DNA of 49,885 nt from Hyalangium gracile. GTDB taxonomy: Bacteria; Myxococcota; Myxococcia; Myxococcales; Myxococcaceae. The notes under the pieces were generated by a model. The model saw only the letters and a list, made by a program, of their open reading frames with translations. It was not told the origin of the DNA and searched no databases. The stretch lies in NCBI RefSeq assembly GCF_020103725.1, contig NZ_JAHXBG010000046.1, positions 1-49,885 on the forward strand, given 5' to 3'. Position numbers and translations under genes: made by a program. This document shows positions 24,101 to 41,272 of this stretch, piece by piece. Within the stretch, counting starts at the first letter, position 1. Each line of letters opens with the position of its first letter.

Positions 24101-24625
24101 CTGCACCAAGAAAATCAGAACGGCAAAGAAGACCACTACAACCGGTATCTCCTCGCGGAGGCGTTAAGTAACCGTGGAGAGGTCGTCCTCAGTGCGGGCA
24201 AAGGGGACGATAAATTGGACGTTGCGGAGCGCTACCTCGAGCAGGCCTTCGATCTGGGGCAAGACTGTGTCAAGGCGAAGCCTGGCAATCAGGTCTATCG
24301 CTTGTCTCTTGCCTTGACACTTGTCAGGCTCGGGAGGTTGCGGGACGCACAAAAGAGGACTGAACTTGCGGACCAGCATTTCAAGGAGGCGGAGACCCAT
24401 GGGCGCTCGCTACGGGAGGGGGAGCCTCTCAACAAGCGCTACGCCATCGCTCTTGCCAAGGCCTTGCAGAGCCACGAGGAGTCCCTCCAGGCCCGTGGAG
24501 CACATGAGCAAGCCGAGCGCCTCCGCTCAGAGCGGTGCAAGCTGGTCAAACCATTCCGGAAAGAGGACGACGCGGATGTGCGCTTCAACCCCCTGAGCCA
24601 CTCATGTCCACCGGAGGGAAAGTGA
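21179..24625 (+). CDS. Ser/Thr protein kinase fused to STAND ATPase and TPR domain
   Basis: 1148 residues from ATG 21179; the frame extends to 21047 but the kinase fold begins at YRLLRLIGSGGMGQVF. Kinase motifs: Gly-rich loop 19-27, Lys41 (VALKLL), HRDLKPEN with Asp136, DFG in LLDFGIAKL, and GTYTYMAPEQL. A novel-STAND domain follows with Walker A GLSGVGKSS (about 337-345) and LLLVIDPMEELFTL as Walker B. A predicted membrane helix (MATAAIAAGLLIVFF, about 765) leads to a C-terminal TPR-like array. Kinase-STAND fusions of this size are frequent in myxobacteria and sense unknown ligands. The sigma-factor gene overlaps or abuts its stop and another kinase follows, so the three form a signalling operon. 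Confidence 0.9.
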   Translation: MERPTPTHVGPYRLLRLIGSGGMGQVFAAVHENMGQEVALKLLLPDPEGDPQRVARFLQEARALAELNHPGVVRVYHCDRTGDTAFLAMELLHGQSLREWMHGQTGPVSLSSALILCRQIASVMADVHARNIVHRDLKPENVFLCPETAAPLGYRVKLLDFGIAKLPPIADGVLAATQVHTHASTLLGTYTYMAPEQLNPSSVDGRADVYSLGVLLFELLTGHAPFVADDPVKLLTAHQHETPPSLKQWVPTLPAAFCAFVDTMLAKTPGARPTMPRCREVLAISWEHVKEGCPVPGLAPFTEEAAELFFGRKEETRALLELLGEARVGRRRWVQVEGLSGVGKSSLLRAGVLPRLQESQEPGEARWIIATMRSMEAPARNLARALTDAYANAGAEKMSEEQVERALTASPEALRDFVTSHTPQGSLLLLVIDPMEELFTLDADVRDWLDARLAAALAAPECPLRLLTSLRSDFLHRLKQLPGLAHQFHGAARYPVLPMEEEALAQVIQGLARHAGLPLGRGLAERMVRDTQGEGGRLPLLGHALRELWTLSAGKPLTLEHYERIGGVGGALARQAEGLLESLGAEGKERARCLLLELVQVGRGVPDTRRPRSREQVLSAAGGDELAEQVLLRLTGMRTGNDSEAQQGLRLVLLSAEAEPSRQRVELVHETLLHKVPSLAEWIEQDRPLLERQADLEAIALVWEQRQCPTEGLPTGTLLQHYRGAMDAPQGGGSLARKLSSREARFLQAAERLERQRAWAQRARMATAAIAAGLLIVFFTGRIEQERLAMQALHRSLDVLESFVGGLDWEFSRAPYTLEARRRMLQIFEKTLNSLSEHERQDPKAQLTRIRLRHRQSDLAFHDDTLAEADGFLRAAREQLDAGLTLHSEDGEWQKELALNHSKRGKVALARGDTHGASAHFTQALKLLDHPGVKTKDSVDDRRTKAVSHSEWAELQFQLGHTDDAAQAYESAIRLHQENQNGKEDHYNRYLLAEALSNRGEVVLSAGKGDDKLDVAERYLEQAFDLGQDCVKAKPGNQVYRLSLALTLVRLGRLRDAQKRTELADQHFKEAETHGRSLREGEPLNKRYAIALAKALQSHEESLQARGAHEQAERLRSERCKLVKPFRKEDDADVRFNPLSHSCPPEGK

Positions 24626-24627
24626 AC

Positions 24628-25413
24628 ATGGGGCCGCCGCCGGTGCCAGGAAGGTCCATCGAGGAATTGATCCGCCAGGCGCGTGCGGGGGAGGAAGGAT
24701 CGCTTGAGGAGCTGATCCGCCGCTACCAGCGCAAGATGGGGATGTGGGCCGAAGAGCGCGGGTGCCTGGAGAGACCGGGCGGTGTGCGCCCCTCGGACAT
24801 CTCCCAGGAGGCGGCGCTCCTGGTGTACCAGCGCTTCATCTCCTTTAAGGGGAGCTCCAAGGGCGAGTGGGACGGCTGGCTCCGGAGCATCGTCCTCCAT
24901 CAAGCCGAGCAGATGCTCCGGAAGGAGGGGAGCCAGAAGCGCAGCGCTGTGGCCACCGTCCCCTTGGATGCCGATGAGGCGCTGGAAGTGCGAGCGGCGC
25001 AGCCGAGCCCAAGCCAGCACACCGCCCACAACGAGGAGCGGCGCCTAGTCTGGACGAAGCTCTTCTCACTCAAGGGAGATCAGGGTGAAGCAGTACGACT
25101 CTATTTCATTGAGGGCCTAACAAAGGCCGAGGTGGCAAAGCAGCTGGGGCGCTCCACGATCGCCGCTGTCGACTCGCTGCTGCAGCGGGGAGTGGCAGGC
25201 CTGAAGGAGAGCGCGTCTGGAGAGACGAGCTCCGCCACGGAGGCGGCCTTCCGGATCTTCCTCCGGAAGTGCGAAGCGGGCGAGGACGTCGATCCAAAGG
25301 CCTTCGTCGCGAGTTACCCGCACTGCGCCGATGAGCTCCGGGAGATGCTCCGCTGGGTGGAGCGGCTGAAGGCGCTGAAGCGCACTGGCTCCTCCTCGAA
25401 ACCGAAGGGCTGA
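24628..25413 (+). CDS. ECF-like RNA polymerase sigma factor
   Basis: 261 residues from ATG 24628; GTG 24622, which overlaps the kinase TGA as GTGA, is an equally possible start. GGAGGG at 24613-24618 serves either. Sigma-2 region: IEELIRQARAGEEGSLEELI to DISQEAALLVYQRFISF and WLRSIVLHQAEQMLRKE. Sigma-4 region: EAVRLYFIEGLTKAEVAKQL and the helix-turn-helix GRSTIAAVDSLLQRGVAGL. A C-terminal tail (FLRKCEAGEDVDPKAFVASYP, HCADELREML) is the type of module often found at the N-terminus of kinases and may mediate contact with them. Lying between two kinase genes, it is probably controlled by phosphorylation and could drive the downstream operon. Confidence 0.85.
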   Translation: MGPPPVPGRSIEELIRQARAGEEGSLEELIRRYQRKMGMWAEERGCLERPGGVRPSDISQEAALLVYQRFISFKGSSKGEWDGWLRSIVLHQAEQMLRKEGSQKRSAVATVPLDADEALEVRAAQPSPSQHTAHNEERRLVWTKLFSLKGDQGEAVRLYFIEGLTKAEVAKQLGRSTIAAVDSLLQRGVAGLKESASGETSSATEAAFRIFLRKCEAGEDVDPKAFVASYPHCADELREMLRWVERLKALKRTGSSSKPKG

Positions 25414-25420: not shown

Positions 25421-26260
25421 ATGATCTCTCCAGGAGACCACGCAGGCCTGTACGTCGTCGTCCGACGCGCCGCCGTGGGTGCCACCAGCCATGTGTATGA
25501 AGGGCGCCACGCCGAGAGCGGCGAACAGGTGGCGATCAAGGTGCTCAGCCCCGAGCTGTGCATCCACGCAGAGGTGGTGGCGCGGTTCATCAACGAGGCA
25601 CAGGATCTCCAGCGGCTGCGGCACCCGCACTTGGTAGCAGTGCTGACCTCAGGTGTTCTTCCCCAAGGCGCGCCGTTCATGGTTCTGGAGTGGCTTCCAG
25701 CGAACCTGCACGAGGTACTCACGGAGGCAGGACGGCGCCTGCCACCCGAGGCCTGCGTGGAGATCATCCGTCAGCTGGCGGGAGCCCTGGCCGTGCTGCA
25801 CGCGCACGAGATCATTCACCGCGATCTGAAGCCCGCCAATGTGCTGTTGGCACGGCGTGAAGCGGAAGCCCGGATCGTCAAGCTCGCGGATCTGGGGCTC
25901 GCCAAGCGCGGCAAGGGAGAAGGTGCACTGACTCCTGCCCTCCCCGTCTCGACGGCAGGCAGCGCACTGCTGGGGACAAGGGAATACATCGCACCAGAGC
26001 AGTGGGTCCGCTCCAAGAGTGTGGGTCCTGCAGCCGACGTCTACTCGCTGGGAGTCCTCTGGTTCGAGATGCTGACCGGGCGTGTACCCTTCAGTGACGA
26101 CGCACAGCAGGATCTGATGTACCAGCACCTGTTCTTGAAACCTCCGCTGGCGCTTCTCGAGGACGTGGCCCCTGAGCCCGTACGGGACCTAGTGGCCCGC
26201 ATGTTGGAGAAGGAGGCCGAGAAGCGCCTCACCCTAGGCGAACTGCTGCAACAGCTGTAG
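25421..26260 (+). CDS. Ser/Thr protein kinase, minimal kinase domain
   Basis: 279 residues, only a catalytic domain and no membrane segment. Lys40 (VAIKVL), HRDLKPAN with Asp135 and Asn140, and GTREYIAPEQW are intact; the metal-binding DFG is DLG (KLADLGLAK, Asp157), which is tolerated. The glycine-rich loop is weak (AAVGATSHVYEG, with a single clear Gly), so ATP affinity may be unusual. It begins 8 bp after the sigma-factor stop, in the same operon. Likely a soluble kinase acting on the sigma factor or on the downstream system. Confidence 0.88.
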   Translation: MISPGDHAGLYVVVRRAAVGATSHVYEGRHAESGEQVAIKVLSPELCIHAEVVARFINEAQDLQRLRHPHLVAVLTSGVLPQGAPFMVLEWLPANLHEVLTEAGRRLPPEACVEIIRQLAGALAVLHAHEIIHRDLKPANVLLARREAEARIVKLADLGLAKRGKGEGALTPALPVSTAGSALLGTREYIAPEQWVRSKSVGPAADVYSLGVLWFEMLTGRVPFSDDAQQDLMYQHLFLKPPLALLEDVAPEPVRDLVARMLEKEAEKRLTLGELLQQL

Positions 26261-26460
26261 GCGGCCTGCTAGCCACCTGTCGGCGCTTCCTTGAAAAAGG
26301 AAAAAATGCACGGGGCTACGATGGGGTCCCTCGCTTTATGGCGTCCTCACAGGTGGACGAGAGAGGTGCAGCAGGAGCTGAGCGCGTAACTCAACGAGAA
26401 AAAGCACCTGGCCGCGATGGCATTTGTTCCTCATTTGCGTCCTCTTTTCTGAGGCCCCAG

Positions 26461-27666
26461 ATGAGCACTCCAACGCACCAACCCGAGAAGCCAGTACACC
26501 CACCCCAGCGCACAGAGGCAGCTCGCCTGCCCGCTTCAGCCGATGCGTTCTCGCAGGACCAGCATCTGCGCATCGACAGCACGCTCGCCGACATCCAGCG
26601 CATGCACAGGCAGCTCTCAGACTTTCTCCGGCGCCCGGCCCTGAAGCAGCTTGCGGCACTTGCTGGGGGGGATTACTTCCTCCATGCGGAGATCTCCACC
26701 ACCTCGGAGGACAGCGCCGACGGGTTCGTCTTCGACTACATCGGCAAGAGGCTGTCGTTCACCCGCCCCTTCCTGTGGGCGCTCAGCCAAGCGAAACAGC
26801 GCCTGGGGGCCACATGGGAGGAGTTCCTTCGGCTCTTCCTGCTGCACGAGGGCTACCACATCGGCCAGAGACTGACCGGCTACAGCTACCGGGGCATTGG
26901 CCGAGCGGGCTTCGTGCTCGAAGGCATCGACTACGACGCGGACACGTTCTCGATCCAAGGCTGCCTGCAATGGCGGCGCGACAAAGAGCAGGGCTACGTG
27001 AGGGACAAGGGCGAAGTGGGGGTGCTCGCCGAGATCGTCAGGACCGTGCTCGGGGGTATCTCCGCATTCGACGAGTTCGAGGGCCGCTTCCCGCTCAGGG
27101 AACTCCCCGAGCGTCGCCTGCGCCGCTACCTCATCTGGCACATGCAGCACGCGCGTGCGGCTTCCGCGCCGAAGGGGCTGCCCCTCAGAGAGTTCGGCTT
27201 GGGCAGGCGAGTCATCGTGGAAGCACCGGGGATCCCGCTGCGGGTGGAGGAGCGCAGCGGCACGCTGCGGAGCGTCGCCTTGCTCTCGGAGCTGTCCCGC
27301 GCCTCCGAGTTGGAGATCGCGATCTACACGAACAGCCGCTTGTTCAGGTCGACCCCTGGGCAGGCCCTGGAGGTGCTGGAGGCCCTGCGCGAGAACGACC
27401 TGGACAGGGTGAAGAAGGGGTTCTTCGCCCTGTTCTTCTCCATGGGTGCGCTGGCTCCCTGGCTGGAGCAATCGACGAAGCGCCCTGGCAACGCGAGCGC
27501 CGCGGCGGTCCAGAGTCCAGCTCCCAAGGCTCCGACTGCAGGAGTTCCTGCGGGCGTGATCTCCAACACCATCACGGGAGACAACGCGAACGTGTCTAGC
27601 ATCGGCCACCAGACCGTCCACATGGTCGTAAGAAGACCAAATCTCACGGGAACGGAGGCCGAGTAG
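26461..27666 (+). CDS. zincin-like (HExxH) domain protein, free-standing copy
   Basis: 401 residues from ATG 26461 (GAGG six bases upstream). Residues 60-330 hold LFLLHEGYHIGQ (His129, Glu130, His133) followed by YRGIGRAGFVLEGIDYDADTF, where Glu154, Asp157 or Asp161 could be the third zinc ligand, as in HExxH metallopeptidases. RRLRRYLIWHMQH and LEIAIYTNSRLFR follow. The same landmarks in the same order occur in the SAVED fusion protein 13 kb downstream, so this is a homologous domain. The C-terminal tail has VISNTITGDNANVSSIGHQ, closely matched in the next protein. The family is not one I can name; peptidase activity is inferred from the motif. First gene of the long run. Confidence 0.7.
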   Translation: MSTPTHQPEKPVHPPQRTEAARLPASADAFSQDQHLRIDSTLADIQRMHRQLSDFLRRPALKQLAALAGGDYFLHAEISTTSEDSADGFVFDYIGKRLSFTRPFLWALSQAKQRLGATWEEFLRLFLLHEGYHIGQRLTGYSYRGIGRAGFVLEGIDYDADTFSIQGCLQWRRDKEQGYVRDKGEVGVLAEIVRTVLGGISAFDEFEGRFPLRELPERRLRRYLIWHMQHARAASAPKGLPLREFGLGRRVIVEAPGIPLRVEERSGTLRSVALLSELSRASELEIAIYTNSRLFRSTPGQALEVLEALRENDLDRVKKGFFALFFSMGALAPWLEQSTKRPGNASAAAVQSPAPKAPTAGVPAGVISNTITGDNANVSSIGHQTVHMVVRRPNLTGTEAE

Positions 27667-27670: not shown

Positions 27671-30364
27671 ATGGCCGAGCATAACGATCCTGCTTCTCCA
27701 GGGGCTGCCCCCAAGGCCCAAGGCACGGGTGGCGGTGCAGCTCTGACAGAGCCTGCCACGGACGGGGCGACGACAGGTCCCGTCATCTCGAATAAAGCCG
27801 GTGGAAGCAATGCCACTTTCAATTCGATCGGCAACCAGAACAATTACCACAACAACTTCATCAACGTGCCGAAGGAGCAGTTCGACAGGCTCATGTCCTT
27901 GGCGCAGAGGGACACCGAGGCTGCCAGGCACTTCCCTCCCCCGCGTGTGGTTCGCCAGCCGCCACCGGTGGACTGGCCTGTTTCTGAAGGCCTGCGCGTA
28001 CTGCCTAATCCGCTCAGCGACCTCTTGAAGGGAGGTATCGAGAAACCGCTCAACGACGCCATCACTCGCGCCGCGGATCAGCTGTTCGAGAACCATATCC
28101 TTGTGATCGAGTGTATCGACAGCGAGCTGCAATGGGCGGCGGCGGCGGAAGTCATCCAACGCGCGAAGCTCCAGACAACCCCTGTGCGGGGGCTGGTCTC
28201 CGGCAGCTCCCCCGACCCCACCGAGGCCGCCACGAGCGGAGTACCTGAGGAGGACACCGCTGACTGGACACCCGCCAACATCATCCATCCCCAGATCAAA
28301 GATGGGCCATGTGTGATGCTGCTGGTGTTGCAAGGAGATCGAGGACAGAAGCTCATCGATCGACTCTTTCAGACGGACATCAAGACGCAGGAACTCAGCA
28401 ACAAGCTGAGGGAGAAAGAGAGGCATTTGATCCTCCTCCCGCGGGGTTCCGCGCTTGAGCACCTCCGGCGTGATCACTCCGAGCGAGGGTTCCTCGGCGA
28501 AGTCCTCCAGATCAGGTTCCTGGAGCTGTGGCTGCGCAGGCACTTTCCCGAGGAAGCCGCCGTGTACGCGGCAAAGCTCCAGAAATTCCTCGAGCGCGAA
28601 GGTTGGGATGGCAACGAGAAGGAGATCTACAAACGGCTTGCCGCCCCCGGGACCGGGGAAGTCGGTCGGCAACGCCTGCGGGATCTGCTCCAGAGCGGTG
28701 ACCTCGATCCAGAGGCGTTGATCACGCGGGTGAGAGCTGCGCTCGATGCCACGAACGGCGCGGATGAAGCACTGCTCACGGCGGTCTTCGTTGCCACCTT
28801 TCTGCCCCAGCTCAGCCAGCACGACTTTGTCCGCGCCGTGGAGAAGCTCCTCGAGGGCCGGGAGCGCACCGAATGGAGCCTCCCTCCCGGTACTCCTGCT
28901 GACAGCAACACCCGACCGGTGCAGACCCGGATCCCACTCGCGAAGGAATGGCGGGAGAGGCTGCGTCCGATCATGAAGAACTCCCACCTGGAGCTGCAGC
29001 TGCTTCCTGATGGAAGCAGGGGCATCGACTTCCAGGGACTCGGCATGGCCTCCAAGCTGAAGTTGCTCTTCGAGGAAGCGCCGATGTTCCTCGACCAGCA
29101 GCTCGAGCGGATCCGGACGGCCGGTCTCCTGTTCGATCGAAGCGAGGCGCTCAGCCATGCGGTGATCGAGCTTGTCACGATGGCCGCCACTCAGGATCCG
29201 ATCCGATACAACGCGGAGTGGCTGCTGGGGATGCTGTTCCGGATCGACCCGGAGACGCAGGACATCCCGCTCACGGAGGATACCGCCGGAATGCACCTGG
29301 AGATGCTCGGCACCCGTCATCTGGCCGGGGCGAGCAGCCTGCTCCGCCGCCTGATCAACGTCGGGCCCGCCAGCGCCTCCGGATTGAACGAGCAGCTGAG
29401 CCAACGCGACCCCTCCCTGGTGAACGCGATCTTCGAGAAGCTGTGCCGGGTGGGCTCCACGCGCGCGGCGACCTTGCTCCTGGAGTTGGCCTGGCAGCTG
29501 CGGGACGCACCGGGCTTCGATCTGTGGCACTGGATTCGCCAGGTGATCGAACGGGGGAACGACGAGCCGCGTGACAGAGCGGTGCAGGTTCTTCAGCGCA
29601 GCCTGCAGAGCGAGGCGAGCGACGCATCGGCCGACTTCGAGCGGCTCAAGTCCTGGCTGCCCAAGGAGAAGCAGGGCGGTGGCTGGGGCTCTGTGATCGC
29701 GCAGCGGATCGTCACTGGGTGGTGCATCGCCTCCATCCACTTCGCCTCGGGCGTCCGCTCCCAGAGTGTCTCCGCCGTCGAGAGCTTCCTGAAGCGATTC
29801 ACGGCACGAGGTGGGACTGCCGCAATCCGCTCTCTGGTCGAGGTCCTGCTTCGCCGGGAGATCGTCAAGACCCTGTTCACCGAGCACCACGCCCACCGGG
29901 GAGAGCTGTTGGCGGTGTTCCTGCTGCCGCCAGAGAAGGACTCCTTCGAGGTCCCAGCTCTGGGAGCCTGGCTCGAGGTCGTCGTCGGAGCGTGGAACAA
30001 GACAGTGAACGAGCTGGGCTCGGACATCGACAACACCTCGTTCCCTCACTTCCTGCTCCCAGCGCTCACGCTGGCGGCGTGGTGCGAGCTGTTCGCGGAT
30101 CAGGCGGACGCAGTACCCGCCATGGCGGCCGCCCTCCGCTCTACCCTCGACGAGGAGCAGCAGAGCTCTGTGCAGCTCTGGTTGGGCATCCTGGGCAAGG
30201 TGATGCTGGCCTCCGAGGCCCAGGTGCTGGAGCAGCAGCGGCTCGGCGACGCGGAGAAGGTTCAGATCCTGGACGCGATGGCCACGCGGCGCGAGCGGAT
30301 CGAGCAGCTGCAGGCCGGGATGAACCCGTCAGCATTAGAGGAGTCCAGCCATGATCAAGCTTGA
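27671..30364 (+). CDS. large protein with VISN/SIGNQ segment and degenerate NTPase-like region
   Basis: 897 residues, starting 4 bp after the preceding gene. An Ala/Pro/Thr-rich start leads to VISNKAGGSNATFNSIGNQ (38-56), matching the tail of the zincin-like protein. Residues 100-400 look like an ATPase fold without Walker A: PLSDLLKGGIEKPLNDAI, HILVIECIDSELQWAAAAEV, VMLLVLQGDRGQKLI and HLILLPRGSALEHLR occupy the places of P-loop, Walker B and sensor. The rest (400-897) is alpha-helical, possibly HEAT-like (LLLELAWQLRDAPGF). No membrane segment. Probably a scaffold or inactive STAND partner. Its end overlaps the next start by 14 nt. Not a recognised family. Confidence 0.65.
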   Translation: MAEHNDPASPGAAPKAQGTGGGAALTEPATDGATTGPVISNKAGGSNATFNSIGNQNNYHNNFINVPKEQFDRLMSLAQRDTEAARHFPPPRVVRQPPPVDWPVSEGLRVLPNPLSDLLKGGIEKPLNDAITRAADQLFENHILVIECIDSELQWAAAAEVIQRAKLQTTPVRGLVSGSSPDPTEAATSGVPEEDTADWTPANIIHPQIKDGPCVMLLVLQGDRGQKLIDRLFQTDIKTQELSNKLREKERHLILLPRGSALEHLRRDHSERGFLGEVLQIRFLELWLRRHFPEEAAVYAAKLQKFLEREGWDGNEKEIYKRLAAPGTGEVGRQRLRDLLQSGDLDPEALITRVRAALDATNGADEALLTAVFVATFLPQLSQHDFVRAVEKLLEGRERTEWSLPPGTPADSNTRPVQTRIPLAKEWRERLRPIMKNSHLELQLLPDGSRGIDFQGLGMASKLKLLFEEAPMFLDQQLERIRTAGLLFDRSEALSHAVIELVTMAATQDPIRYNAEWLLGMLFRIDPETQDIPLTEDTAGMHLEMLGTRHLAGASSLLRRLINVGPASASGLNEQLSQRDPSLVNAIFEKLCRVGSTRAATLLLELAWQLRDAPGFDLWHWIRQVIERGNDEPRDRAVQVLQRSLQSEASDASADFERLKSWLPKEKQGGGWGSVIAQRIVTGWCIASIHFASGVRSQSVSAVESFLKRFTARGGTAAIRSLVEVLLRREIVKTLFTEHHAHRGELLAVFLLPPEKDSFEVPALGAWLEVVVGAWNKTVNELGSDIDNTSFPHFLLPALTLAAWCELFADQADAVPAMAAALRSTLDEEQQSSVQLWLGILGKVMLASEAQVLEQQRLGDAEKVQILDAMATRRERIEQLQAGMNPSALEESSHDQA

Positions 30365-32606
30365 CGAGCTGGTGCGACGTCTCGAACGGAAGGCCTATCA
30401 ACCCGGCAACGCCTCGCACTTCATCTATGATCCAGCGATCGACTCGTTCCTGGAGAAGCTCCCCCTGTTCCTGACAGGAGGGCTGCAGTTCTACCATGTC
30501 ACCTGCTCGCCCATGGCAAGCCCGGATGCGAAGGGCACCATTGGTCCCATCGGCGTCAAGGATCCCGCCAATGGCACGATGCTGCGCATCGAGCTCGACT
30601 ACGAGGCATGGATCGCGCCGGAGCATGCCCTGGAGGTGGTCCGCGCCGTGGCTGGCGAGAACCCAGGGAAGCGACTCGAGGAGCTGGTGGTCGAAGCTGT
30701 GCAGCAATTCGCGCGTACAACCGCTGCCACGTTCTTCAGCCGGCTGCCTGGGCGTGCGGTGGACGTTGCGCGCGAGCTGGAGCTGCGGATCTCGGAGGAG
30801 TACGGCCTGAGCCTCGAGCTGAAGCTACGGCTGCTCGGTGACCCCACTTTCTCGGAGCACCCGCTGCCGCGACTCGACATTGACGTACCGGTGCACCTGG
30901 AAGACTACGCGACGGAGCTGAACATGCAGCTCGGCGTGGTCCTCTCGGTGAGTGCTCACGATCAATTCCGCGCCACAGACGCGATGAAGCGCCAGCCGCA
31001 CCTGAAGGAGACCCTGCGAGCGGTCACCCGCGAGTTCTTCGTCGATGTGAAGCTGCAGCGCTTCCGTGCTGAACTCACGGGCTCGCTGCAACAGGAGCTG
31101 TGCGAGCGCCTGAAGCAGTCGCTGTCCCAGTGGTACCTGAACTTGAAGACCCTCTCGATCACCCTGCGAACCCCACTGCCGGACGTGGCTCGGTTCGCGC
31201 ATGAGGAGTCAGCGTTCACAATCGAGCTCCGCGGCTACCCGCGTCCCGTCAGCCTGCGCACCCGCGTCCAGCTCGCCCTGACTGACGAGGGCAGGTACCA
31301 CCGTGCAGGCGCGCCGACGCTCAAGCAATGGGTCGAGGACAGCGCCCGGCGCATTGTGCAACAGAGCCTCTTCCACGTGCGCTACTCTCAGCTCCATGCC
31401 GACCTGACCGATTGGGAGCGACTCATCCTCAAGGAGCTTCAGGAGGCCGCCGACGCCATCGGCTATGCCGTCAAAGCGCAGATCACCACTCCGGAACTCC
31501 CTGAGCACAGGTTCAAACAACCCTTTCCGCTCGTCGTCTCGGGGCAGTTCGCCACCTCGGTGGATCACGTGAAGACGGGACTCGAGCTGGTTCTGCGCTT
31601 GCAGCTGGACCAGCTGGAGTCCGTGAAGACTGAACTCAATCGGGGCGCGGACCTCGAGAAGCTCTTCCACGATGTCGTACTCGACGAGACCACCGCCTAC
31701 CTGCACACGGTGTCACCGGGTTTTCTCTTCACCCGCTTCAGCCCACCGGTGGACCACACGGGCAAGCAGGTGCTCGTGCCCCAGGAGGACAAGGACAAGC
31801 GGCGGCCGGTGACGGACGAACTGTACGACCTTATCAAGAACGTGCTCGAGAGCCGCTATGGACTGAAACTGCTCACGCTCACGGTCAAGCAGGGCAAGTC
31901 AACCATCCGGGATTCCTACCTGGCGCTGACCCAGGCCATCGCGATCCCGTTCCAGGTCAATGTGCCCCTGCTGGGTCACCCCGGGTGGACCATGCATCAC
32001 GGTACGTTGCAGGTGCACGGTGTCGCCGACGAGGGCTGGCCTCGCTTTCAGTCATTCCAGCCTACCCTGGAGACGGTGACCACCTTCGTCACGTCGGCAG
32101 CGAGGGATTTGTTCTCGGAGTTCCTCACGGGCAACGGAGCCATCGGCCTCACCGAGGAGCAGGCGCGCGAGCTCATCTTTGTCAGTCTGCGGAAACGGAT
32201 GAGGGACAGGATCGGGCTCGATACCGCAATCGTGGCCTGGTACCGCGACCCCACCACCCGCGAGCAGGCCCTGTTCGATGCCCAGCAAGAGGCCTTGCAG
32301 CAGCAGCTCGACGACAATCGCCGGCTCCTCGGGGAACAAAGCGAATGGCAACGGGCGCGGATCGCCGAGTTGAGGCAGCAGGAGAGCACGCTGATTCTGC
32401 GGGGGAAGCATGCGGACGCCGAGAAGATACGGCGGAAGGTGGATGAACTGTGCTCCAGCTTCGGCACCTCGTTCGGGATGTCCACCACCGACCTGAGCCT
32501 CCCGCAGCAGAAGCCGAACAAGAAGCTCACGGCGGACACCCCACCCTCGACCGACACGCCACCTCTTCCCGCGGCGACGGACCCTGACCGGAACTCCAAG
32601 TCATGA
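30351..32606 (+). CDS. tandem SPFH-like (band 7-like) repeat protein
   Basis: 751 residues with no signal peptide or clear membrane helix. I read about five repeats of a strand-rich segment followed by an amphipathic helix pair and a closing strand: about 76-163 (LEELVVEAVQQFARTTAATF to EYGLSLELKLRL), 176-273, 287-379, 392-517 and 533-632. The helix-strand pattern is that of SPFH/prohibitin domains, where a helix pair ends in YGLxLxxLxI. Residues 633-700 are a charged coiled coil (REQALFDAQQEALQQQLDDN), then a Pro/Thr tail. SPFH proteins form membrane-associated oligomeric rings; five in one chain would be unusual. The assignment is by pattern only. Confidence 0.55.
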   Translation: MIKLDELVRRLERKAYQPGNASHFIYDPAIDSFLEKLPLFLTGGLQFYHVTCSPMASPDAKGTIGPIGVKDPANGTMLRIELDYEAWIAPEHALEVVRAVAGENPGKRLEELVVEAVQQFARTTAATFFSRLPGRAVDVARELELRISEEYGLSLELKLRLLGDPTFSEHPLPRLDIDVPVHLEDYATELNMQLGVVLSVSAHDQFRATDAMKRQPHLKETLRAVTREFFVDVKLQRFRAELTGSLQQELCERLKQSLSQWYLNLKTLSITLRTPLPDVARFAHEESAFTIELRGYPRPVSLRTRVQLALTDEGRYHRAGAPTLKQWVEDSARRIVQQSLFHVRYSQLHADLTDWERLILKELQEAADAIGYAVKAQITTPELPEHRFKQPFPLVVSGQFATSVDHVKTGLELVLRLQLDQLESVKTELNRGADLEKLFHDVVLDETTAYLHTVSPGFLFTRFSPPVDHTGKQVLVPQEDKDKRRPVTDELYDLIKNVLESRYGLKLLTLTVKQGKSTIRDSYLALTQAIAIPFQVNVPLLGHPGWTMHHGTLQVHGVADEGWPRFQSFQPTLETVTTFVTSAARDLFSEFLTGNGAIGLTEEQARELIFVSLRKRMRDRIGLDTAIVAWYRDPTTREQALFDAQQEALQQQLDDNRRLLGEQSEWQRARIAELRQQESTLILRGKHADAEKIRRKVDELCSSFGTSFGMSTTDLSLPQQKPNKKLTADTPPSTDTPPLPAATDPDRNSKS

Positions 32607-33853
32607 CCGGGCCAGGAACCGCCAGTGATCGGGAAGCCGCGCAGGGTGCCACCCCTCCTGATCTGGACGCGGCGTTTCGGGACGCGACTTCCGACAGAAC
32701 GCGGTCCCATCCAGAGGGTGGCTCTCCACCTCCGAAACCACCCGCCCCGGAGCCGAGCCCGCCCATCAGCGAGCCACCGCCCACGACGCAAACCCCTGCC
32801 GGCCAGTCGCGGCAGTCCACCACGAGCCATGCGGCACGGCGCGGCCGCAGAGAGTCATGCATCGTGATCGGGCCGCCACGCGCTGGCAAGACCTGCGTGC
32901 TGGCCGCGCTCGAGCCCGCCTGCTACGCCGGCCCTCTCGACGACGACGGCCAGCTGAATCTTCGCCATGGCTTCACCGTCGACGGGCAGAGCCTGCTGTC
33001 GGGCTACACGGTCGACTGGGTCACTCGAGACGAGGATCCCCATTCTACCCTAGGCTGCACCGACTACATGCTCGAGGTCACGGTACAAGCCCGGCGCCCC
33101 GGGTTCCGCTCCTCGCAGCGCGTCACCACAATCCAATGCACTGACACTCCGGGTGACCTGCTCTTCCCCAAGCAGGGCACTCAGGTCAACGTGGACTTGC
33201 GAAACAGGCTCCTGGGGCAGGCGAAGGAAGCCTCCTCGATCATCCTCGTGCTTGATTCGACCGCGTCCTCCGCCGAGCTGGTCGAGCGGCAGCTGCGGTC
33301 AATCCTAGACAGCATCACGAGCCTCTCCGGCCCGGAGAACCCGGGGTTCTGGAGACGCCTTCTCCGTTGGATCCCGCAGCGGCCACAGGTGGGGCGGCAT
33401 GTCCCCCTCGCCAGCGTGAGGTTCCTGATCCTGCTGACCCAGATCGACAAGCTCGCACACTCCGTCTCTCGGCAGCTTAGGGAGCAGGATCTCGACGTGT
33501 CTCCGCTTGCGGTGGCCAAGGCCATCGACCCGGTCGCCCTGGCTTTGGAGCTCATCGGCGAGCGCAATCTCCGCCGCATCTGGTCCGTCATGGGACGCCG
33601 GGCGCGGCTCGCGGTGGGCGTCTCGAGCGCCCGCGGATTCCTGCGAGGCTCGTCTGGCCAGACCTTCACCGAGTGGAGCGCCGGGCGCGACGCTCAGGAG
33701 CGGCTCGGCGCCTGGAGCAGCTTTGGGGTGTACGAGGCGCTCCGCTTCATCACGACGGGGCGCTGTGGCGGTCCGGTCAAACGGGTGCATGACCTGAGCG
33801 AGCTCGTCCGGGAACGGGCGCTGCCACTCGACTCTTTTCCGTTCATGAGGTGA
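32603..33853 (+). CDS. P-loop GTPase-like protein
   Basis: 416 residues, start ATG 32603 overlapping the previous TGA (ATGA). A Pro-rich disordered N-terminus (1-80) precedes Walker A GPPRAGKT (90-97), a switch/G3 motif DTPGD (181-185) and a G4-like TQID (279-282) in FLILLTQIDKLAHS. The hydrophobic strands SCIVIG, VTTIQC and SSIILVLDST complete a small-GTPase-like core. The family seems to belong to the TRAFAC class of conflict-system GTPases, with TQID in place of NKxD, so nucleotide preference is not certain. It sits between the SPFH-like and DUF4407-like genes and may regulate membrane assembly of the complex. Confidence 0.75.
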   Translation: MTGPGTASDREAAQGATPPDLDAAFRDATSDRTRSHPEGGSPPPKPPAPEPSPPISEPPPTTQTPAGQSRQSTTSHAARRGRRESCIVIGPPRAGKTCVLAALEPACYAGPLDDDGQLNLRHGFTVDGQSLLSGYTVDWVTRDEDPHSTLGCTDYMLEVTVQARRPGFRSSQRVTTIQCTDTPGDLLFPKQGTQVNVDLRNRLLGQAKEASSIILVLDSTASSAELVERQLRSILDSITSLSGPENPGFWRRLLRWIPQRPQVGRHVPLASVRFLILLTQIDKLAHSVSRQLREQDLDVSPLAVAKAIDPVALALELIGERNLRRIWSVMGRRARLAVGVSSARGFLRGSSGQTFTEWSAGRDAQERLGAWSSFGVYEALRFITTGRCGGPVKRVHDLSELVRERALPLDSFPFMR

Positions 33854-33858
33854 ACCCT

Positions 33859-35286
33859 ATGCCCAAGGCGATCAACTCGACCCCGATACAGACAACCCAG
33901 CCCAAGTCCCCCCCCCACCTCCGACTGTTCGTGCACCAGACCCGGTCGCGAAGAAGCCACCTGCTCGCCCGACTCGTTCGGCTGGACACCTGGGGGCACA
34001 CTCTGCTCGGCGAGCGGGTCGCCGCCGAGATGGCCGCTGCCTACCTGATCCTCGGGGTGGTCTTCGTCTTCGAGGCCGCGGCTTGGAGCCTGCTGTTCAA
34101 CTATGTGCTCCACAAGGGGATATTCGCCTTTGACGCTTGGACTCTCGCCGCGATCGGCCTCGGGCTTCTCTGGGGCTGCGGCATCTTCGCGATCGACAAG
34201 GGGCTCATCACGACGGACCTTCATCGGCCAGGAGCGGCGAAGTGGTGGGCTTTCGCCGCACGGGCGCTCCTGGTGGTGGTGTCCGCGCTCATCACGGCCC
34301 AGCCTATCGAACAGCTCGTGTTCGACGCGAGCATCCATGAACGGCTGAAGGAGGAGATCCTGCGCGAGGAGGCGGTCGCCCAGGTATCTTCCGTCAAGGC
34401 GACACTGCAGGCGGCTCAGTCCACAGAGCAAAAATCGGCGGAAGACAACATCCCCAGCATCATCAAAAACCGCTACGACGATGCGAAGGCTGCACGCGAT
34501 GCGGCGCTCCAGAGGCGAGAGCAGGCCGAGCGGGAGTTCATGAGCCAACAGCGGCACCTGGAGGAAGCCGAGAGATACAGGAAGTACCTGCAGGACAAGC
34601 TGGATCGCCTGCAGGCCGATCCCACGGCGCAGGACAAAGTGGAGGCCGCTCGCGAGCAGTACGAGCAGCATGTCCGAAAGGTGAGAGCCGCGAAAAAGAA
34701 CCTCGGTGCTGCAGATGACGACAGGACGCTGGCCCTGAAAGCTCTCGACGACGCCGAGCGCGAGTTCACGGAGTCCTCCGTCACCTACACTCGAGAGCTC
34801 AACACCGCAAATGGAGTGAAGGCTGCTGAAACGGCGCGAATCCGAGCCGAAGCCAAACCCATGGAGAAGTTCATCAGCGATCTGCGCCGGGCAAACTATG
34901 GGGATCCCGTCACGACGCCGAGCGGCGAGCCGCTTCAATGGCGCCGGGCCGACCTGATTGAGCGAATGCACATCCTCTACCAGCTGACCCAGGGCAAGCC
35001 CCCCCGCTGGCCGACGAACGTGGAGCCCTCTCGGAAGGAAGAAGCGATCGTGCTGTTGCGGCTACCGGCGTCGGCCACGAGCGAGGTGGACGCTAACGTC
35101 TCCATGTTCTGGCCATGGCTCTTGGTACTCCTCATTGCCGCGGCCATTCCATCCCTTGCTATCTTCTTCAAGTTCACCATGAGCGAAGAGATGAAGAACT
35201 ACTACTCAGTGAAGTGCCAAGCACTGGCCGGCAACCCGGATGCGGTGCTACATCAGAACGTTTGGCGGGAGAGCGCAAAGAACTGA
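33859..35286 (+). CDS. DUF4407-like membrane protein with coiled coil
   Basis: 475 residues from ATG 33859 (GAGG nine bases upstream); GTG 33850, overlapping the GTPase TGA, is an alternative. Four membrane segments: AAYLILGVVFVFEAAAWSLL, TLAAIGLGLLWGCGIFAID, ALLVVVSALITAQPIEQLVF and FWPWLLVLLIAAAIPSLAIF. Between the third and fourth is a roughly 230-residue charged coiled coil (REQAEREFMSQQRHLEEAER and following). The FAIDKGLI and ALITAQPIEQLVF signatures are what I associate with DUF4407. It probably anchors the complex in the inner membrane, with the coiled coil reaching out. Function of the family is unknown. Confidence 0.8.
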   Translation: MPKAINSTPIQTTQPKSPPHLRLFVHQTRSRRSHLLARLVRLDTWGHTLLGERVAAEMAAAYLILGVVFVFEAAAWSLLFNYVLHKGIFAFDAWTLAAIGLGLLWGCGIFAIDKGLITTDLHRPGAAKWWAFAARALLVVVSALITAQPIEQLVFDASIHERLKEEILREEAVAQVSSVKATLQAAQSTEQKSAEDNIPSIIKNRYDDAKAARDAALQRREQAEREFMSQQRHLEEAERYRKYLQDKLDRLQADPTAQDKVEAAREQYEQHVRKVRAAKKNLGAADDDRTLALKALDDAEREFTESSVTYTRELNTANGVKAAETARIRAEAKPMEKFISDLRRANYGDPVTTPSGEPLQWRRADLIERMHILYQLTQGKPPRWPTNVEPSRKEEAIVLLRLPASATSEVDANVSMFWPWLLVLLIAAAIPSLAIFFKFTMSEEMKNYYSVKCQALAGNPDAVLHQNVWRESAKN

Positions 35287-35363: not shown

Positions 35364-38300
35364 ATGAAAGAGTTTGCGGATATACCAGCGCCCGAGGCGC
35401 TCCGGAGCGCGCAGGTTGGTGCAGGAGCAAGGGATGCGCGGACCACGAATGAGCTGGGCACTCCCCGGGACGCTTCGCTGGAGGCCGTGTGCTTCACGGC
35501 AGGCGTTGATGGCACCCCATTTGCCGCAGGAGTCACCCATGCCTATCTGGCTGCGGATCGCCCTCCTCCCGCGGTCATCGCGGGGATTTCCTCAGGAGCG
35601 CTCTCGGCGGCGGCCATGGCCGCCAGCTTCGAGGAGCTGGCCTCATGCCACGAGGAGAAGGGGCGGAATGAAGCCCGGCGCTGGCGCTGGTTCCGCTCCT
35701 ATCTGGACGCTCTGGCGAACCGGCCCCTGGATGTCTTCTGGCGGGGCCTCCCCAGCTTCGCCGAGTTCTCGACCCTGGGAGGCCGCCTACGCCCATTGCC
35801 CGACCCAGCGATCCCGCAGGACTCTTTCCTCAAGGAAGCCGAGCGTGATGCGTTGAAGCGCCGGTTCCTGCTCCAGCACCTCGGGCAGTGGATCTGCCAC
35901 CTCCCGCTCAAGATGAAGGACATAGCGGGGCTGTTCGTCAATAGCGCCGTAGCCCGGGAGCGCAACATTGGCACATGGTGGGAGCGTTGCATGGCCACGG
36001 CGAGGTTCCTGGGACTCGCGGTCTTGAGCGTCCTGCAGTTCCTCCTGCACCTCGTCGTCACCCCTCAGTTCCTCAACCAGGCGCACTACCTGCAGCCCAC
36101 GAAGTCGGGAAAGCGAAGGAGCCCGCGGCTGCGCCCGCTGTTTGGCTGGCGTGGCTGGCTGGGATCCACGGTGATCTTTGTCCTGCTCCTCACGTGGTTC
36201 GTCACCCTGATCGGGCTGGGACTGGGCATGGTGCTAGGGGGACTCCATTCTTTCTCCCTGCCTCGCTGGCCAGCCATGGCCCGGTGGATCCCGGATATGG
36301 ACGTGCTCCAGTGCCTAAAGCTCGGAGCCATCATTGCGGCGGCTCCAGTGGCCGTTGGCCTGCTGGTGAGCATGCTGCGCCCGCTCACGACCTGGTTGGC
36401 TCAGCAGCACCGCCTTAGGCCGCTCGCATGGCTGGCACAGAAGGCCGTGGATTTCTTCTCGAAGGGAAACTCCGCGCTCGTGGAGTACCTCATCGAGCGA
36501 ACGGGCATCACCCGCGCCCTCCTCTCCGACTTCTACCTCCTCCATTTCCTGGCGCATCTCTTCGCGGATGGGGGCAGACGGACAAGGACCATTGGCTCGT
36601 TCAAGCACTCCCAGCTCCTGTTGGTTGCCGCTCCACTGCAGACAATTCCCAGGAAGCCCGACCAAGCCAACGATGCGAAAGCGCCTGGGGGTCAGCCGCG
36701 CGGTAGCAAGACCCACCAGCTCTGGGCAGCTCCCGGCACGGACTTGATCGCAGCCCTACGGGCCTCACTCGCGCTGCCGGGCCTGTTTGAACCGATTCGG
36801 CTCTCTCAGGAGCGGTTCTCGAAAGCATGGCAGGGCGCCCAGTCGATTGACTTCTCGCGCATCACCCAGGCCGACCTAGTGGACGGCGCCGTAATCCGGA
36901 ACAACCCGCTGCCGGCCCTCTTCACGTTCCTGGATCCACGCCAGAAGGACCAGGGCTCGAAGCTGGGCGATGAGATCGAGCGAGCGAACACACCGGAACG
37001 CCCGGGGATCCATGTCGTCTACAGCATCGCCGTGGACAAGCGCGAGCTAGGCGAGGCCGCCTCACGAGAAGGTTTTCCGGACATCGTTGAGGCGGCCCAG
37101 AAGAGCCTGCGCCTGGCGCGCCGGTGTGACACGGAGTTGGAGGTCATCCAGACCAACTTCATGTCGGGGCTCGAGAAAACCATCCGCGACTTGCAGCCCC
37201 AACAGGGCGCCGCGATGCAGCCCCTCCGCTGCATCTACGCGGACGAGATCGCCCCCGCCTCGCACGAGCCCTTCCAGAACCAGGTGGCGCCCACGCGGGA
37301 TGAGGTCCTCCGCCTGACGGCGGAAGGATGTCGGCGCACGCTTGGCCGACTGTACGCGCGGGAGATCCTGACCCACCCCCAGGGAAAGGATACTGGCAAG
37401 CTCCAATGCAAAATGCTGCTCTCAGCAGTAGCGAAGCGCCGCGAGCAAGCCATCTCTCAGGCTCAGCGCGGCGGGTGTGCGGAGGTCTGCGGGCACTGCA
37501 CCCATGAAGTGGAGGTTCCCCAGGAGCTGCAACGCGCACAGCGTAAAGAGGCCACGCAACCTCGGGAGAGTGCGCTCCCCTTCCGGGCAGACCACTTCCC
37601 GCAGCTGCGGAGAGACAGGCCCCGCGTCGTCCTCGTGACGAGCGGAGGCGTGTTCCGGGGCGCCTTCCACGTCGGGTTGGCAGGGGCGCTCCTGGAGATC
37701 GGTTTGCAGCCTGATCTCATCGTCGGTGCCTCGGTGGGCACGCTCATAGGAGCGGTGACGGGCGCGCTCTTCCATCTGGAGGAAACGAAGGCGCGAAAGC
37801 GCCTGCAGCAGCTGGCGAAGATCTTCCTGGAGGTGGACCAGCAGGTGACGCATACGCGCTCGCTGTTGAGCGCTGTGCGGACCCTCGCCTTACGGGCTAC
37901 AGCGGTGAACCTCTCGCCACGTGAGGTGATCTGGATGCTGCAGCGGGGAGCCCGAGAGGATGCCGGCTTCGCAGCCGTGGGGGCGCCTCCCGCGCTGCTC
38001 GACGCTCTCGCCGACATGTTCCTATTCCCTCACCGGGAGACGGCAGAGATGGCGTCGAGCTTCGTGACAGGGAAGTTCGCTGAGGCCCTTCGCCAGTTCC
38101 TGCATCTGCTCCGCCAGGAGACGCTGCCTCGGCTCGATGTCCGTGAAGCCTTGCTGGGCACTTCCTTGTTGGAGCTGCGCGCCCGAGAGCTGCTCGATCT
38201 CTCCGACGAGGCAGCAGCTCTGTCGACGCACCTCGAGCCGGATTGGTGGACGCTCGGCTCGGGTGGACAACCTTTCATGGGGCCGCCGGGGGACCCGAAG

Positions 38301-39308
38301 CGCAGGCACATTGCCTTCTTCGGGACGGCGACCGATCTCTGGACCGAGAGCCTGAAGCTGCTGGGAGGTGAAGCACCAGAAGATGAGCCGTATGACATCG
38401 TCGAAGCGGCGCTCGCCTCAAGCGCCTTCCCGGCGATCTTCTCCCCGCGGCGGGAGAGCCAGATCCGCCCGGGCGTCGGCCGCTCCGATGTCGTCTTCGC
38501 AGATGGAGGGATGTTCGACAACCTGCCCTTCATCCCGGCGATCAATGTCCTGCGCTCTGTTCAGCTGGATGAGTTGAAGCCCTGGGAGAACAGGGAGAAG
38601 GTCCCGGACGCGAAGCTCATCCAGTCCCTGGAGGACCGCAGAGACAATCCAGACCTCTTCATCGTTGGGGCGCTCAACGTGAACCCGGAGGAGACGGACG
38701 CGGCGCCTGTGCCTTACCAGCACCTGCCAGCCATCTTCGCGCGAGCGGGTTCCCTTCGTGACAACGTGAAGATCCGGACCTTCCAGCGCGCCTCGCGAGC
38801 CGTGGACCGTCAGATCCAGCGGCTGGTCGAGGCCGCGAAGCAAGGGGGCCGCATGGACAGTTCCCAACGCCAGCTCATTGCTGGCGTCGTCAACTCCGCC
38901 ATCCTTCCGGTGTTCCCCACCTCGCGGGATCACCTAAACCCAACCTTTGCCTTCACACCGAGCACGGGCTTCGCTCCAGAGCGCGTCGGCCGGTCCATCG
39001 GAGACGGCTGCTATCAGACGCTGCGGACCCTGGCCCTGGAGCAAGCTGGGCTGCCGCAAGAGGACCAGCGCACCCGAGCCCTCAGGGCCGTGCGGAACGC
39101 GGGAAAGCTCAAGGACCTCCGTCGCCGGACCGAGAGAGAGGACCCACGTGCCGAAAATCGCATGAATGCATTCCTGTGCCCCTTCTTCGAAAAAGTCTCT
39201 GACTCAGGCCAAGGGGAGAGATTCGAGTGTCCGTTCGTGGAGGAGAAGAAGCAGAAAGCCGCGAACCTCATCTTTCGTCAGTGCATTTCCGACCCGATGC
39301 ACGGATGA
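35364..39308 (+). CDS. double patatin-like phospholipase with membrane segments
   Basis: 1314 residues from ATG 35364 (G-rich site at 35355-35360). Two patatin domains are readable. The first has nucleophile elbow GISSG (74-78) and Asp in DGAVIRNNP (about 506). The second has oxyanion motif SGGVFRGAFHVG (about 758), elbow GASVG (about 788) and DGGMFDNLPF (about 1046). Both Ser-Asp dyads look intact. Three predicted membrane segments are inserted in the first domain (LAVLSVLQFLLHLVVT, VIFVLLLTWFVTLIGLGLGM, LGAIIAAAPVAVGLLV), which is odd for patatins. Patatins are known CBASS effectors that degrade membrane lipids; here the neighbours suggest a membrane-acting arm. Co-directional with the genes on both sides. 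Confidence 0.85.
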   Translation: MKEFADIPAPEALRSAQVGAGARDARTTNELGTPRDASLEAVCFTAGVDGTPFAAGVTHAYLAADRPPPAVIAGISSGALSAAAMAASFEELASCHEEKGRNEARRWRWFRSYLDALANRPLDVFWRGLPSFAEFSTLGGRLRPLPDPAIPQDSFLKEAERDALKRRFLLQHLGQWICHLPLKMKDIAGLFVNSAVARERNIGTWWERCMATARFLGLAVLSVLQFLLHLVVTPQFLNQAHYLQPTKSGKRRSPRLRPLFGWRGWLGSTVIFVLLLTWFVTLIGLGLGMVLGGLHSFSLPRWPAMARWIPDMDVLQCLKLGAIIAAAPVAVGLLVSMLRPLTTWLAQQHRLRPLAWLAQKAVDFFSKGNSALVEYLIERTGITRALLSDFYLLHFLAHLFADGGRRTRTIGSFKHSQLLLVAAPLQTIPRKPDQANDAKAPGGQPRGSKTHQLWAAPGTDLIAALRASLALPGLFEPIRLSQERFSKAWQGAQSIDFSRITQADLVDGAVIRNNPLPALFTFLDPRQKDQGSKLGDEIERANTPERPGIHVVYSIAVDKRELGEAASREGFPDIVEAAQKSLRLARRCDTELEVIQTNFMSGLEKTIRDLQPQQGAAMQPLRCIYADEIAPASHEPFQNQVAPTRDEVLRLTAEGCRRTLGRLYAREILTHPQGKDTGKLQCKMLLSAVAKRREQAISQAQRGGCAEVCGHCTHEVEVPQELQRAQRKEATQPRESALPFRADHFPQLRRDRPRVVLVTSGGVFRGAFHVGLAGALLEIGLQPDLIVGASVGTLIGAVTGALFHLEETKARKRLQQLAKIFLEVDQQVTHTRSLLSAVRTLALRATAVNLSPREVIWMLQRGAREDAGFAAVGAPPALLDALADMFLFPHRETAEMASSFVTGKFAEALRQFLHLLRQETLPRLDVREALLGTSLLELRARELLDLSDEAAALSTHLEPDWWTLGSGGQPFMGPPGDPKRRHIAFFGTATDLWTESLKLLGGEAPEDEPYDIVEAALASSAFPAIFSPRRESQIRPGVGRSDVVFADGGMFDNLPFIPAINVLRSVQLDELKPWENREKVPDAKLIQSLEDRRDNPDLFIVGALNVNPEETDAAPVPYQHLPAIFARAGSLRDNVKIRTFQRASRAVDRQIQRLVEAAKQGGRMDSSQRQLIAGVVNSAILPVFPTSRDHLNPTFAFTPSTGFAPERVGRSIGDGCYQTLRTLALEQAGLPQEDQRTRALRAVRNAGKLKDLRRRTEREDPRAENRMNAFLCPFFEKVSDSGQGERFECPFVEEKKQKAANLIFRQCISDPMHG

Positions 39309-39376: not shown

Positions 39377-39439
39377 ATGCGATGGATCTTTTCGCGAATG
39401 GCATCTCTGGAGATGAGGGACTGGACTCTCCATGAGTGA
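39377..39439 (+). CDS. possible 20-codon leader peptide before the SAVED gene
   Basis: ATG 39377 follows AGGAGG at 39366-39371 with ideal spacing and encodes 20 residues (MRWIFSRMASLEMRDWTLHE), stopping at TGA 39437-39439. That stop lies inside the first codons of the SAVED gene, which starts at ATG 39432 in another frame and has no good site of its own. This suggests translational coupling. It could also be chance or a sign of an altered start. Confidence 0.4.
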   Translation: MRWIFSRMASLEMRDWTLHE

Positions 39440-41237: not shown

Positions 41238-41272
41238 ACTTCCTCCCTGCCTTACCGTTCAAAGGAGCTCAC

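What the first reader, a model, noticed from the sequence alone, without database searches (positions are those of the whole stretch)
30351..32606. Protein that reads as about five SPFH-like domains in tandem
The chain repeats a strand segment followed by an amphipathic helix and a YGLxLxxLxL-type strand, then ends with a coiled coil. SPFH proteins usually have one such domain and assemble rings by oligomerising; a multi-domain chain would form a large fraction of a ring itself.
Basis: inference. Interest (0 to 1): 0.65.

Follow-up and report, generated by a model that had tools for sequence, protein, structure and literature searches.

The report
Possible tandem SPFH-like scaffold protein
A myxobacterial immunity-type gene cluster contains an orphan protein that seems to string together several copies of the SPFH domain, a part that normally builds cages on membranes; two copies are reasonably supported by sequence, five are not proven.

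Summary
The ORF is real (30351-32606, 751 aa) and overlaps its neighbours. Its tandem SPFH nature is partly supported. A profile from 90 SPFH loci scores repeats 2 and 3 in one register (0 of 1000 shuffles each; 1 and 0 of 2094 decoys reach them). Repeat 4 is suggestive (8 of 1000, 9 of 2094). Pfam Band_7 hits repeats 1+2 at E 0.001, below its cut-off. Repeat 5 rests on pattern only. Self-comparison shows no significant repeat. No convincing homologue was found in 383 other genomes or 283 of another phylum. Neighbours: a GTPase and a DUF4407 membrane protein (this pair seen once more, in another Myxococcota genome), a double patatin, and an HExxH peptidase whose C-terminus shares an amyloid-signalling-like motif with the next protein's N-terminus. 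A CBASS pair follows. Most likely: a soluble oligomeric scaffold tying GTPase and effectors to the membrane in an NTP-dependent conflict system. Arc of a ring or stave of a barrel is open.

The parts
30351..32606 (+). 751-aa orphan protein, tandem SPFH-like chain plus helical tail
   Evidence: ORF; SPFH profile tests; Band_7 sub-threshold; no TM-like segment
30558..30860 (+). repeat 1 (aa 70-170), SPFH-like, weak
   Evidence: Band_7 score rises from 14.6 to 19.6 bits when it is given with repeat 2, no hit alone; own profile: 172 of 1000 shuffles, 239 of 2094 decoys reach it
30861..31178 (+). repeat 2 (aa 171-276), SPFH2-like, supported
   Evidence: 0 of 1000 shuffles, 1 of 2094 decoys reach it; Band_7 best stretch, profile 58-143
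31200..31502 (+). repeat 3 (aa 284-384), SPFH2-like, supported
   Evidence: 0 of 1000 shuffles, 0 of 2094 decoys reach it; no Band_7 hit in pieces holding it without repeat 2
31503..31910 (+). repeat 4 (aa 385-520), SPFH2-like with insertion, suggestive
   Evidence: 8 of 1000 shuffles, 9 of 2094 decoys reach it; no Band_7 hit
31911..32258 (+). repeat 5 (aa 521-636), by pattern only
   Evidence: 449 of 1000 shuffles, 863 of 2094 decoys reach it; no Band_7 hit
32259..32471 (+). helical, coiled-coil-like tail (aa 637-707)
   Evidence: helices 634-683 and 687-707; ten-residue mean pLDDT 53 to 86 over 641-710
32603..33853 (+). P-loop GTPase, distant DO-GTPase-like
   Evidence: 28% identity, E 4e-27 to a GTPase beside DUF4407 in L009; Pfam matches all below cut-off: MMR_HSR1 E 0.0072, DO-GTPase2 13.1 bits E 0.074
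33850..35286 (+). DUF4407 membrane protein with long helical middle
   Evidence: Pfam PF14362 E 2.4e-22; TM-like segments
35364..39308 (+). double patatin, two motif sets, TM-like segments in the first half
   Evidence: Pfam Patatin E 2.2e-29, three stretches; GxSxG and DGA/DGG; start codon chosen by position
26338..27666 (+). HExxH peptidase with amyloid-signalling-like C-terminal motif
   Evidence: PADLOC SAVED_peptidaseM48 5e-57 over residues 68-367; HEGYH; motif at aa 406; no Pfam family
27671..30364 (+). 897-aa protein with matching N-terminal motif, otherwise unassigned
   Evidence: motif at aa 36; alignment score 71, none of 1000 shuffles over 57; no Pfam family at E 1
25421..26260 (+). 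Ser/Thr protein kinase
   Evidence: Pfam Pkinase 9e-47
24535..25413 (+). ECF-type sigma factor
   Evidence: NCBIfam sigma70-ECF 1.5e-14, 54 bits over cut-off 42.9
39432..41237 (+). CBASS effector, SAVED plus HExxH peptidase
   Evidence: PADLOC 2.5e-223; NCBIfam SAVED 5.3e-34; HELAH
41273..42238 (+). CBASS CD-NTase (cyclase)
   Evidence: PADLOC 6.1e-105

Best explanation
The protein is a soluble scaffold made of several SPFH2-type units in one chain (two supported, up to five by pattern) ending in a helical tail. It oligomerises sideways, as SPFH proteins do, next to the inner membrane, where the co-encoded DUF4407 protein supplies the membrane anchor. The co-encoded GTPase acts as a switch that sets or releases the assembly. 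The effectors of the operon, a double patatin lipase with membrane segments and an HExxH peptidase, are held inactive or concentrated by it until an invader is sensed. Shown: gene order, GTPase and DUF4407 homology, catalytic motifs, SPFH similarity of repeats 2 and 3. Inferred: oligomerisation, physical contact between the products, and a defence role.
For: SPFH profile hits in one register for repeats 2 (97-142), 3 (93-143) and 4 (117-148); the summed score of the five repeats (12.4) is above that of 1000 of 1000 shuffles, maximum 1.3. Residues 1-636 beat 1000 of 1000 shuffles and 95 of 95 decoy ORFs with the larger profile. Band_7 E 0.001 for repeats 1+2. Overlapping genes place it between the 897-aa protein and the GTPase. 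The GTPase-DUF4407 pair recurs in another Myxococcota genome, in a locus that also holds a kinase, with a tubulin-like protein encoded nearby on the other strand. CBASS genes follow. PMC7159879 (passages and section 29 read) describes DO-GTPase conflict systems near membranes and Band7-like domains as superstructure-forming parts of the related vWA systems.
Against: All SPFH scores are low in absolute terms (about 6 bits) and below Pfam's cut-off; Band_7 is absent from the whole protein and from 4 of 10 pieces holding repeat 2. Repeat 5 and, by my profile, repeat 1 are indistinguishable from chance. The helical tail also scores above most decoys (19 of 2094 reach it), so helix pattern brings part of the score. 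No internal repeat signal. hhalign did not separate the repeats from shuffles. The structure models were unusable. No homologue means no conservation evidence. In L009, the related GTPase-DUF4407 locus, I recognised no SPFH-like neighbour.
Confidence: 0.42

Rival explanations
1. The chain is a tandem of small strand-helix-helix-strand units of another fold; the SPFH resemblance comes from shared amphipathic helix patterns.
For: Low absolute scores; the helical tail also scores fairly high against the SPFH profile (7 of 1000 shuffles, 19 of 2094 decoys reach it); no internal repeat signal; hhalign does not separate.
Against: Repeats 2 and 3 match the same profile stretch independently and outscore 2093 and 2094 of 2094 decoys; Pfam's own model agrees for repeats 1+2.
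Confidence: 0.33
2. It has one or two SPFH units only, followed by unrelated domains; the five-fold reading is over-interpretation.
For: Only repeats 2 and 3 are clearly above controls; repeat 5 is at chance.
Against: Periodic strand-helix-helix order over the whole chain, with the closing-strand pattern at 109 to 133 aa spacing (sequence, by eye; low-confidence secondary structure).
Confidence: 0.2
3. It is a membrane-microdomain organiser like flotillin with no role in immunity; its place beside defence genes is incidental.
For: SPFH complexes are implicated in membrane organisation (abstract start and passages of PMC12624060).
Against: Overlapping genes with the GTPase and the 897-aa protein, patatin and peptidase effectors, CBASS next door; no TM-like segment; no convincing match in 194 other Myxococcota genomes.
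Confidence: 0.05

Closest known systems
SPFH/Band 7 proteins (stomatin, QmcA, HflK/C, flotillin, prohibitin)
   Same: Helix-helix-strand pattern of the SPFH2 half in at least two units; helical tail after the SPFH part; gene in one operon with a membrane protein
   Different: Several units in one chain, no SPFH1 half recognised, no TM anchor of its own, scores under the curated cut-off
Major vault protein
   Same: A long chain of small domains in a row and a C-terminal helix (nine MVP repeats, one SPFH domain, a helical domain: passages of PMC13100048)
   Different: The vault has one SPFH domain after MVP repeats; no vault family appeared in the Pfam scans here
DO-GTPase/GAP1 conflict systems (Kaur et al. 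2020, PMC7159879)
   Same: P-loop GTPase in a multi-gene cluster with membrane-linked products, kinase and effector-like genes
   Different: DO-GTPase2 match is not significant (E 0.074), no GAP1 identified, no DUF4407 or patatin named in the paper's main text
CBASS with SAVED-peptidase effector
   Same: Genes 39432-42238 are such a pair by PADLOC models
   Different: The SPFH-like gene is in the preceding gene set, not part of the pair

Membership tests
SPFH/Band 7 family (PF01145) | match over the curated Pfam score | tested here: not met
   best 19.6 bits against 23.6, repeats 1+2; nothing for the whole protein
SPFH/Band 7 family (PF01145) | SPFH2-type sequence pattern above chance | tested here: met
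   repeats 2 and 3: 0 of 1000 shuffles each, 1 and 0 of 2094 decoys; not met by repeats 1 and 5
SPFH/Band 7 family (PF01145) | SPFH fold | tested here: inconclusive
   pLDDT 37.7 for the whole chain and 54.8 for repeat 3, too low to judge
SPFH/Band 7 family (PF01145) | oligomeric ring or cage | not testable with these tools
   needs purified protein or cryo-EM
SPFH/Band 7 family (PF01145) | helical domain after the SPFH part | tested here: met
   helices 634-683 and 687-707, the only confident part of the model
SPFH/Band 7 family (PF01145) | membrane anchor or membrane-binding segment before the SPFH part | tested here: inconclusive
   highest 19-residue hydropathy 1.37, no TM-like segment; an amphipathic or lipid anchor was not tested
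DO-GTPase conflict system | DO-GTPase | tested here: inconclusive
   DO-GTPase2 13.1 bits, E 0.074, cut-off 27
DO-GTPase conflict system | GAP1 protein beside the GTPase | tested here: inconclusive
   the 897-aa protein has no Pfam match at E 1 and no similarity to the 1013-aa protein in L009, which itself had no GAP1 match in Pfam
Bacterial amyloid signalling pair | similar motif at effector C-terminus and neighbouring receptor N-terminus | tested here: met
   score 71; maximum of 1000 shuffles 57; best of 919 background segments 48; the two termini were chosen after I had seen the likeness
Bacterial amyloid signalling pair | receptor is an NLR/STAND NTPase | tested here: inconclusive
   no NTPase family hit in the 897-aa protein
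Bacterial amyloid signalling pair | amyloid formation | not testable with these tools
   needs peptide or protein assays

The most novel reading that the evidence does not exclude
A bacterial immunity operon encodes a protein with five covalently linked SPFH units: a prefabricated arc or stave that, with a GTPase switch and a membrane partner, builds a cage holding a double phospholipase and a peptidase until infection. This would be a vault-like scaffold used for immunity.
Probability: 0.25. Interest if true: 0.78.

Novelty: new variant of a known kind. Interest (0 to 1): 0.5.

Why it matters
Known SPFH cages form by oligomerisation of subunits that each carry one SPFH region. A natural chain of several units would show how the interface between units works and whether ring size can be fixed by covalent linkage, and would tie SPFH scaffolds to bacterial immunity. 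Band7-like domains have been proposed as superstructure-forming parts of bacterial conflict systems (PMC7159879, passages read); the passages I read do not speak of tandem chains.

Tried and rejected
Homologue searches. tblastn against plasmids and phages: none. Single-protein scans: genome contigs, 27 stretches with a pattern, none a relative; viral contigs, none; these rely on exact short peptides and see close relatives only. PDB by sequence: none. Phylum search: 4 of 195 genomes at E 0.01, its own included. I judged the other three spurious: the match in L003 lies in an ORF antisense to apparent enzyme genes, L005 is a NusA-like ORF (recognised from memory), and L004 was not read but matches the same query range with the same ORF length. 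Relatives search: 5 of 384 at E 0.05, its own included; G074 is the same spurious match, and the three others (13-14 bits, 28 to 73 query residues) were not examined. Another phylum, which I took to be cyanobacterial from one 6-kb stretch of its centre genome: 0 of 283; the tool warns that an empty answer without a known positive shows nothing. Search with the 897-aa protein: own genome only, 1 of 195.

Repeat-profile searches of the PDB listed 4, 1 and 0 chains at E 10, none named as an SPFH protein. Foldseek with the weak repeat-3 model listed 8 chains, none under E 5 and none named SPFH; the second look gave Z at most 3.8 among 30 chains. With such a model this neither supports nor excludes the fold.

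Profile-profile comparison of single repeats with 50 SPFH sequences: repeat 3 got probability 6.6 against at most 6.4 in 164 control segments, and residues 1-640 scored 20.6 against at most 17.1 in 14 control proteins, but a shuffled copy of repeat 2 got 14.3, best of all, and repeats 1, 2, 4 and 5 were within the controls. I count this as no separation. Mixed SPFH-repeat profiles, three draws each: repeat 2 clear in 3 of 3 and repeat 3 in 2 of 3 draws (at most 1 of 300 shuffles, 0 of 138 decoys); repeat 4 5 to 44, repeat 1 5 to 36 and repeat 5 136 to 228 of 300 shuffles.

GTPase searches: 4 of 384 genomes: own, G016, and two 20-bit matches. I read the ORFs of L067 (one of the two) and saw only housekeeping-type genes; L068 was fetched but not read. 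The genome-contig scan with the GTPase pair found one contig, by its length and ORFs the G016 contig already held. Plasmid and viral scans with neighbours: none.

Literature. One search (six phrases for tandem or multiple SPFH or PHB domains) listed 3 papers: in PMC12624060 the passage read refers to the SPFH1 and SPFH2 parts of one subunit; the other two were seen as listings only. DUF4407 with SPFH, GTPase and patatin, and DUF4407 alone: seen as listings; I saw no report of this protein or cluster there.

Full report
What is there. The window belongs to an 11.7-Mb genome in 81 contigs. A genome of the same phylum (G016) holds a contig whose length and ORFs match a record titled Myxococcota bacterium, so the window is myxobacterial. 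The ORF 30351-32606 encodes 751 aa. With the listed starts it overlaps the gene before it (27671-30364) by 14 bases and the gene after it (from 32603) by 4, and the GTPase gene overlaps the DUF4407 gene by 4, so four genes look translationally coupled. Upstream lie a sigma factor, a protein kinase and an HExxH peptidase; downstream a double patatin and then a CBASS pair.

Is the repeat real? Statistics on the protein alone do not prove it: no self-BLAST hit, and diagonal scores within the shuffle range. Leave-one-out profiles from the other repeats recover only repeat 2 (2 of 300 shuffles and 0 of 241 control segments reach it); repeat 5 is borderline against shuffles (16 of 300) but not against controls (28 of 241); repeats 1, 3 and 4 are at chance.

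Is it SPFH? Pfam gave nothing for the whole protein at E 1. Given as pieces, Band_7 was the best family for repeats 1+2 (E 0.001, 19.6 bits, cut-off 23.6) and for repeat 2 alone (E 0.035, 14.6 bits). In one search, Band_7 appeared in 4 of the 8 pieces that hold repeat 2 (best E 0.0015) and in none of the 2 without it; the 4 failures are the longest pieces. I then built a profile from SPFH genes of Myxococcota, first 50 loci, then 90. With the 50-locus profile, shuffles reaching each repeat were R1 35, R2 0, R3 1, R4 10, R5 284 of 500, and control segments 26, 0, 0, 5, 70 of 94. Over residues 1-636 the larger profile scores 5.9 bits, reached by 0 of 1000 shuffles and 0 of 95 decoy ORFs; the smaller one 3.9 bits, reached by 2 of 1000 and 0 of 95. 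Per repeat with the larger profile: R2 6.2 bits, 0 of 1000 shuffles, 1 of 2094 decoys; R3 6.5 bits, 0 and 0; R4 3.0 bits, 8 and 9; R1 -0.9 bits, 172 and 239; R5 -2.4 bits, 449 and 863. The helical tail gave 2.3 bits, 7 and 19, which shows that helix pattern alone brings some score; R2 and R3 stand above that. Decoys include antisense ORFs. Repeat borders were set by eye and moved slightly between calls. The best stretches of R2, R3 and R4 fall on profile positions 97-142, 93-143 and 117-148, the helix-helix-strand part of SPFH2 by my reading of the family. The window's genome also has ordinary SPFH proteins: 14 Band_7 matches at E 1.

Structure. Full-length AlphaFold without relatives: mean pLDDT 37.7. 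Repeat 3 with the other four repeats as alignment: 54.8, with strands, then two helices, without the closing strand. Foldseek listed 8 matches, none below E 5; the second look gave Z at most 3.8. These models neither support nor refute the claim.

Relatives. None convincing: see Tried and rejected. The sampled sets are small beside all known genomes, so 'orphan' holds only for what was searched.

Neighbourhood. The GTPase matches a protein in L009 at 28% identity (E 4e-27), and in both places a DUF4407 gene follows directly (E 1.7e-19 between them). There the next genes are a 1013-aa protein and a kinase fused to an unknown part; a tubulin-like gene lies nearby on the other strand. I found no SPFH-like protein there by reading the ORFs of at least 250 aa in L009, nor did Pfam in the six proteins given; the rest of that contig (L010) was not read. 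The patatin protein has GxSxG at residues 76 and 790 and DGA/DGG at 509 and 1049, so both units look complete by motif; a third GxSxG (1211) and another DGG (404) lie elsewhere (numbered from 35358). TM-like stretches lie in the first half. The peptidase matches the peptidase part of PADLOC's SAVED_peptidaseM48 effector (5e-57 over residues 68-367) with no SAVED match of its own. Matches to it occur in 25 of 195 phylum genomes including its own, mostly in ORFs over 600 aa.

A motif pair. The peptidase C-terminus (GVISNTITGDNANVSSIGHQ, aa 406) and the N-terminus of the 897-aa protein (GPVISNKAGGSNATFNSIGNQ, aa 36) lie in an alignment of score 71 (maximum of 1000 shuffles 57; best of 919 background segments 48, best of the other window proteins 38). 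I chose the two termini after seeing the likeness. Effector C-terminus with receptor N-terminus is the arrangement described for bacterial amyloid signalling (passages of PMC8086366; PMC12261475). I did not test the motif against the published motif profiles.

Mechanism. I favour a membrane-side scaffold: SPFH-like chain, GTPase switch, DUF4407 anchor, patatin and peptidase as effectors, with signal passed from the 897-aa protein to the peptidase by the motif pair. Gene order, homologies and motifs are shown; contacts, order of events and immunity role are inferred. SPFH complexes in print vary in subunit number, for example 22, 26 and 44 (passages of PMC12624060).

Verdict. Partly supported; a new variant of a known kind if the SPFH reading holds. 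The chief weakness is the lack of any relative, which leaves structure prediction blind.

Noticed in passing
26338-27666 (aa 406-431) and 27671-30364 (aa 36-60): Adjacent peptidase C-terminus and 897-aa protein N-terminus share an amyloid-signalling-like motif, above shuffles and background.
   Followed up: partly
39432-42238: CBASS pair: SAVED plus HExxH peptidase and CD-NTase; the gene set upstream carries a second relative of that peptidase without a SAVED match.
   Followed up: partly
35364-39308: One protein with two patatin units, both with GxSxG and DGA/DGG motifs, and TM-like segments in the first half.
   Followed up: partly
L009 8205-16622: Related cluster in another Myxococcota genome: GTPase, DUF4407, 1013-aa protein, kinase; a Tubulin_2 protein is encoded nearby on the other strand.
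   Followed up: partly
21047-24625: Large Ser/Thr kinase matching PADLOC kinase C3a189 (6e-169) and PD-T4-6 models, directly before the sigma factor gene.
   Followed up: no
44770-45078: Short minus-strand ORF that reads like an HNH-type endonuclease; a second short one at 44444-44746 may be of that kind too (by eye from the starts shown).
   Followed up: no
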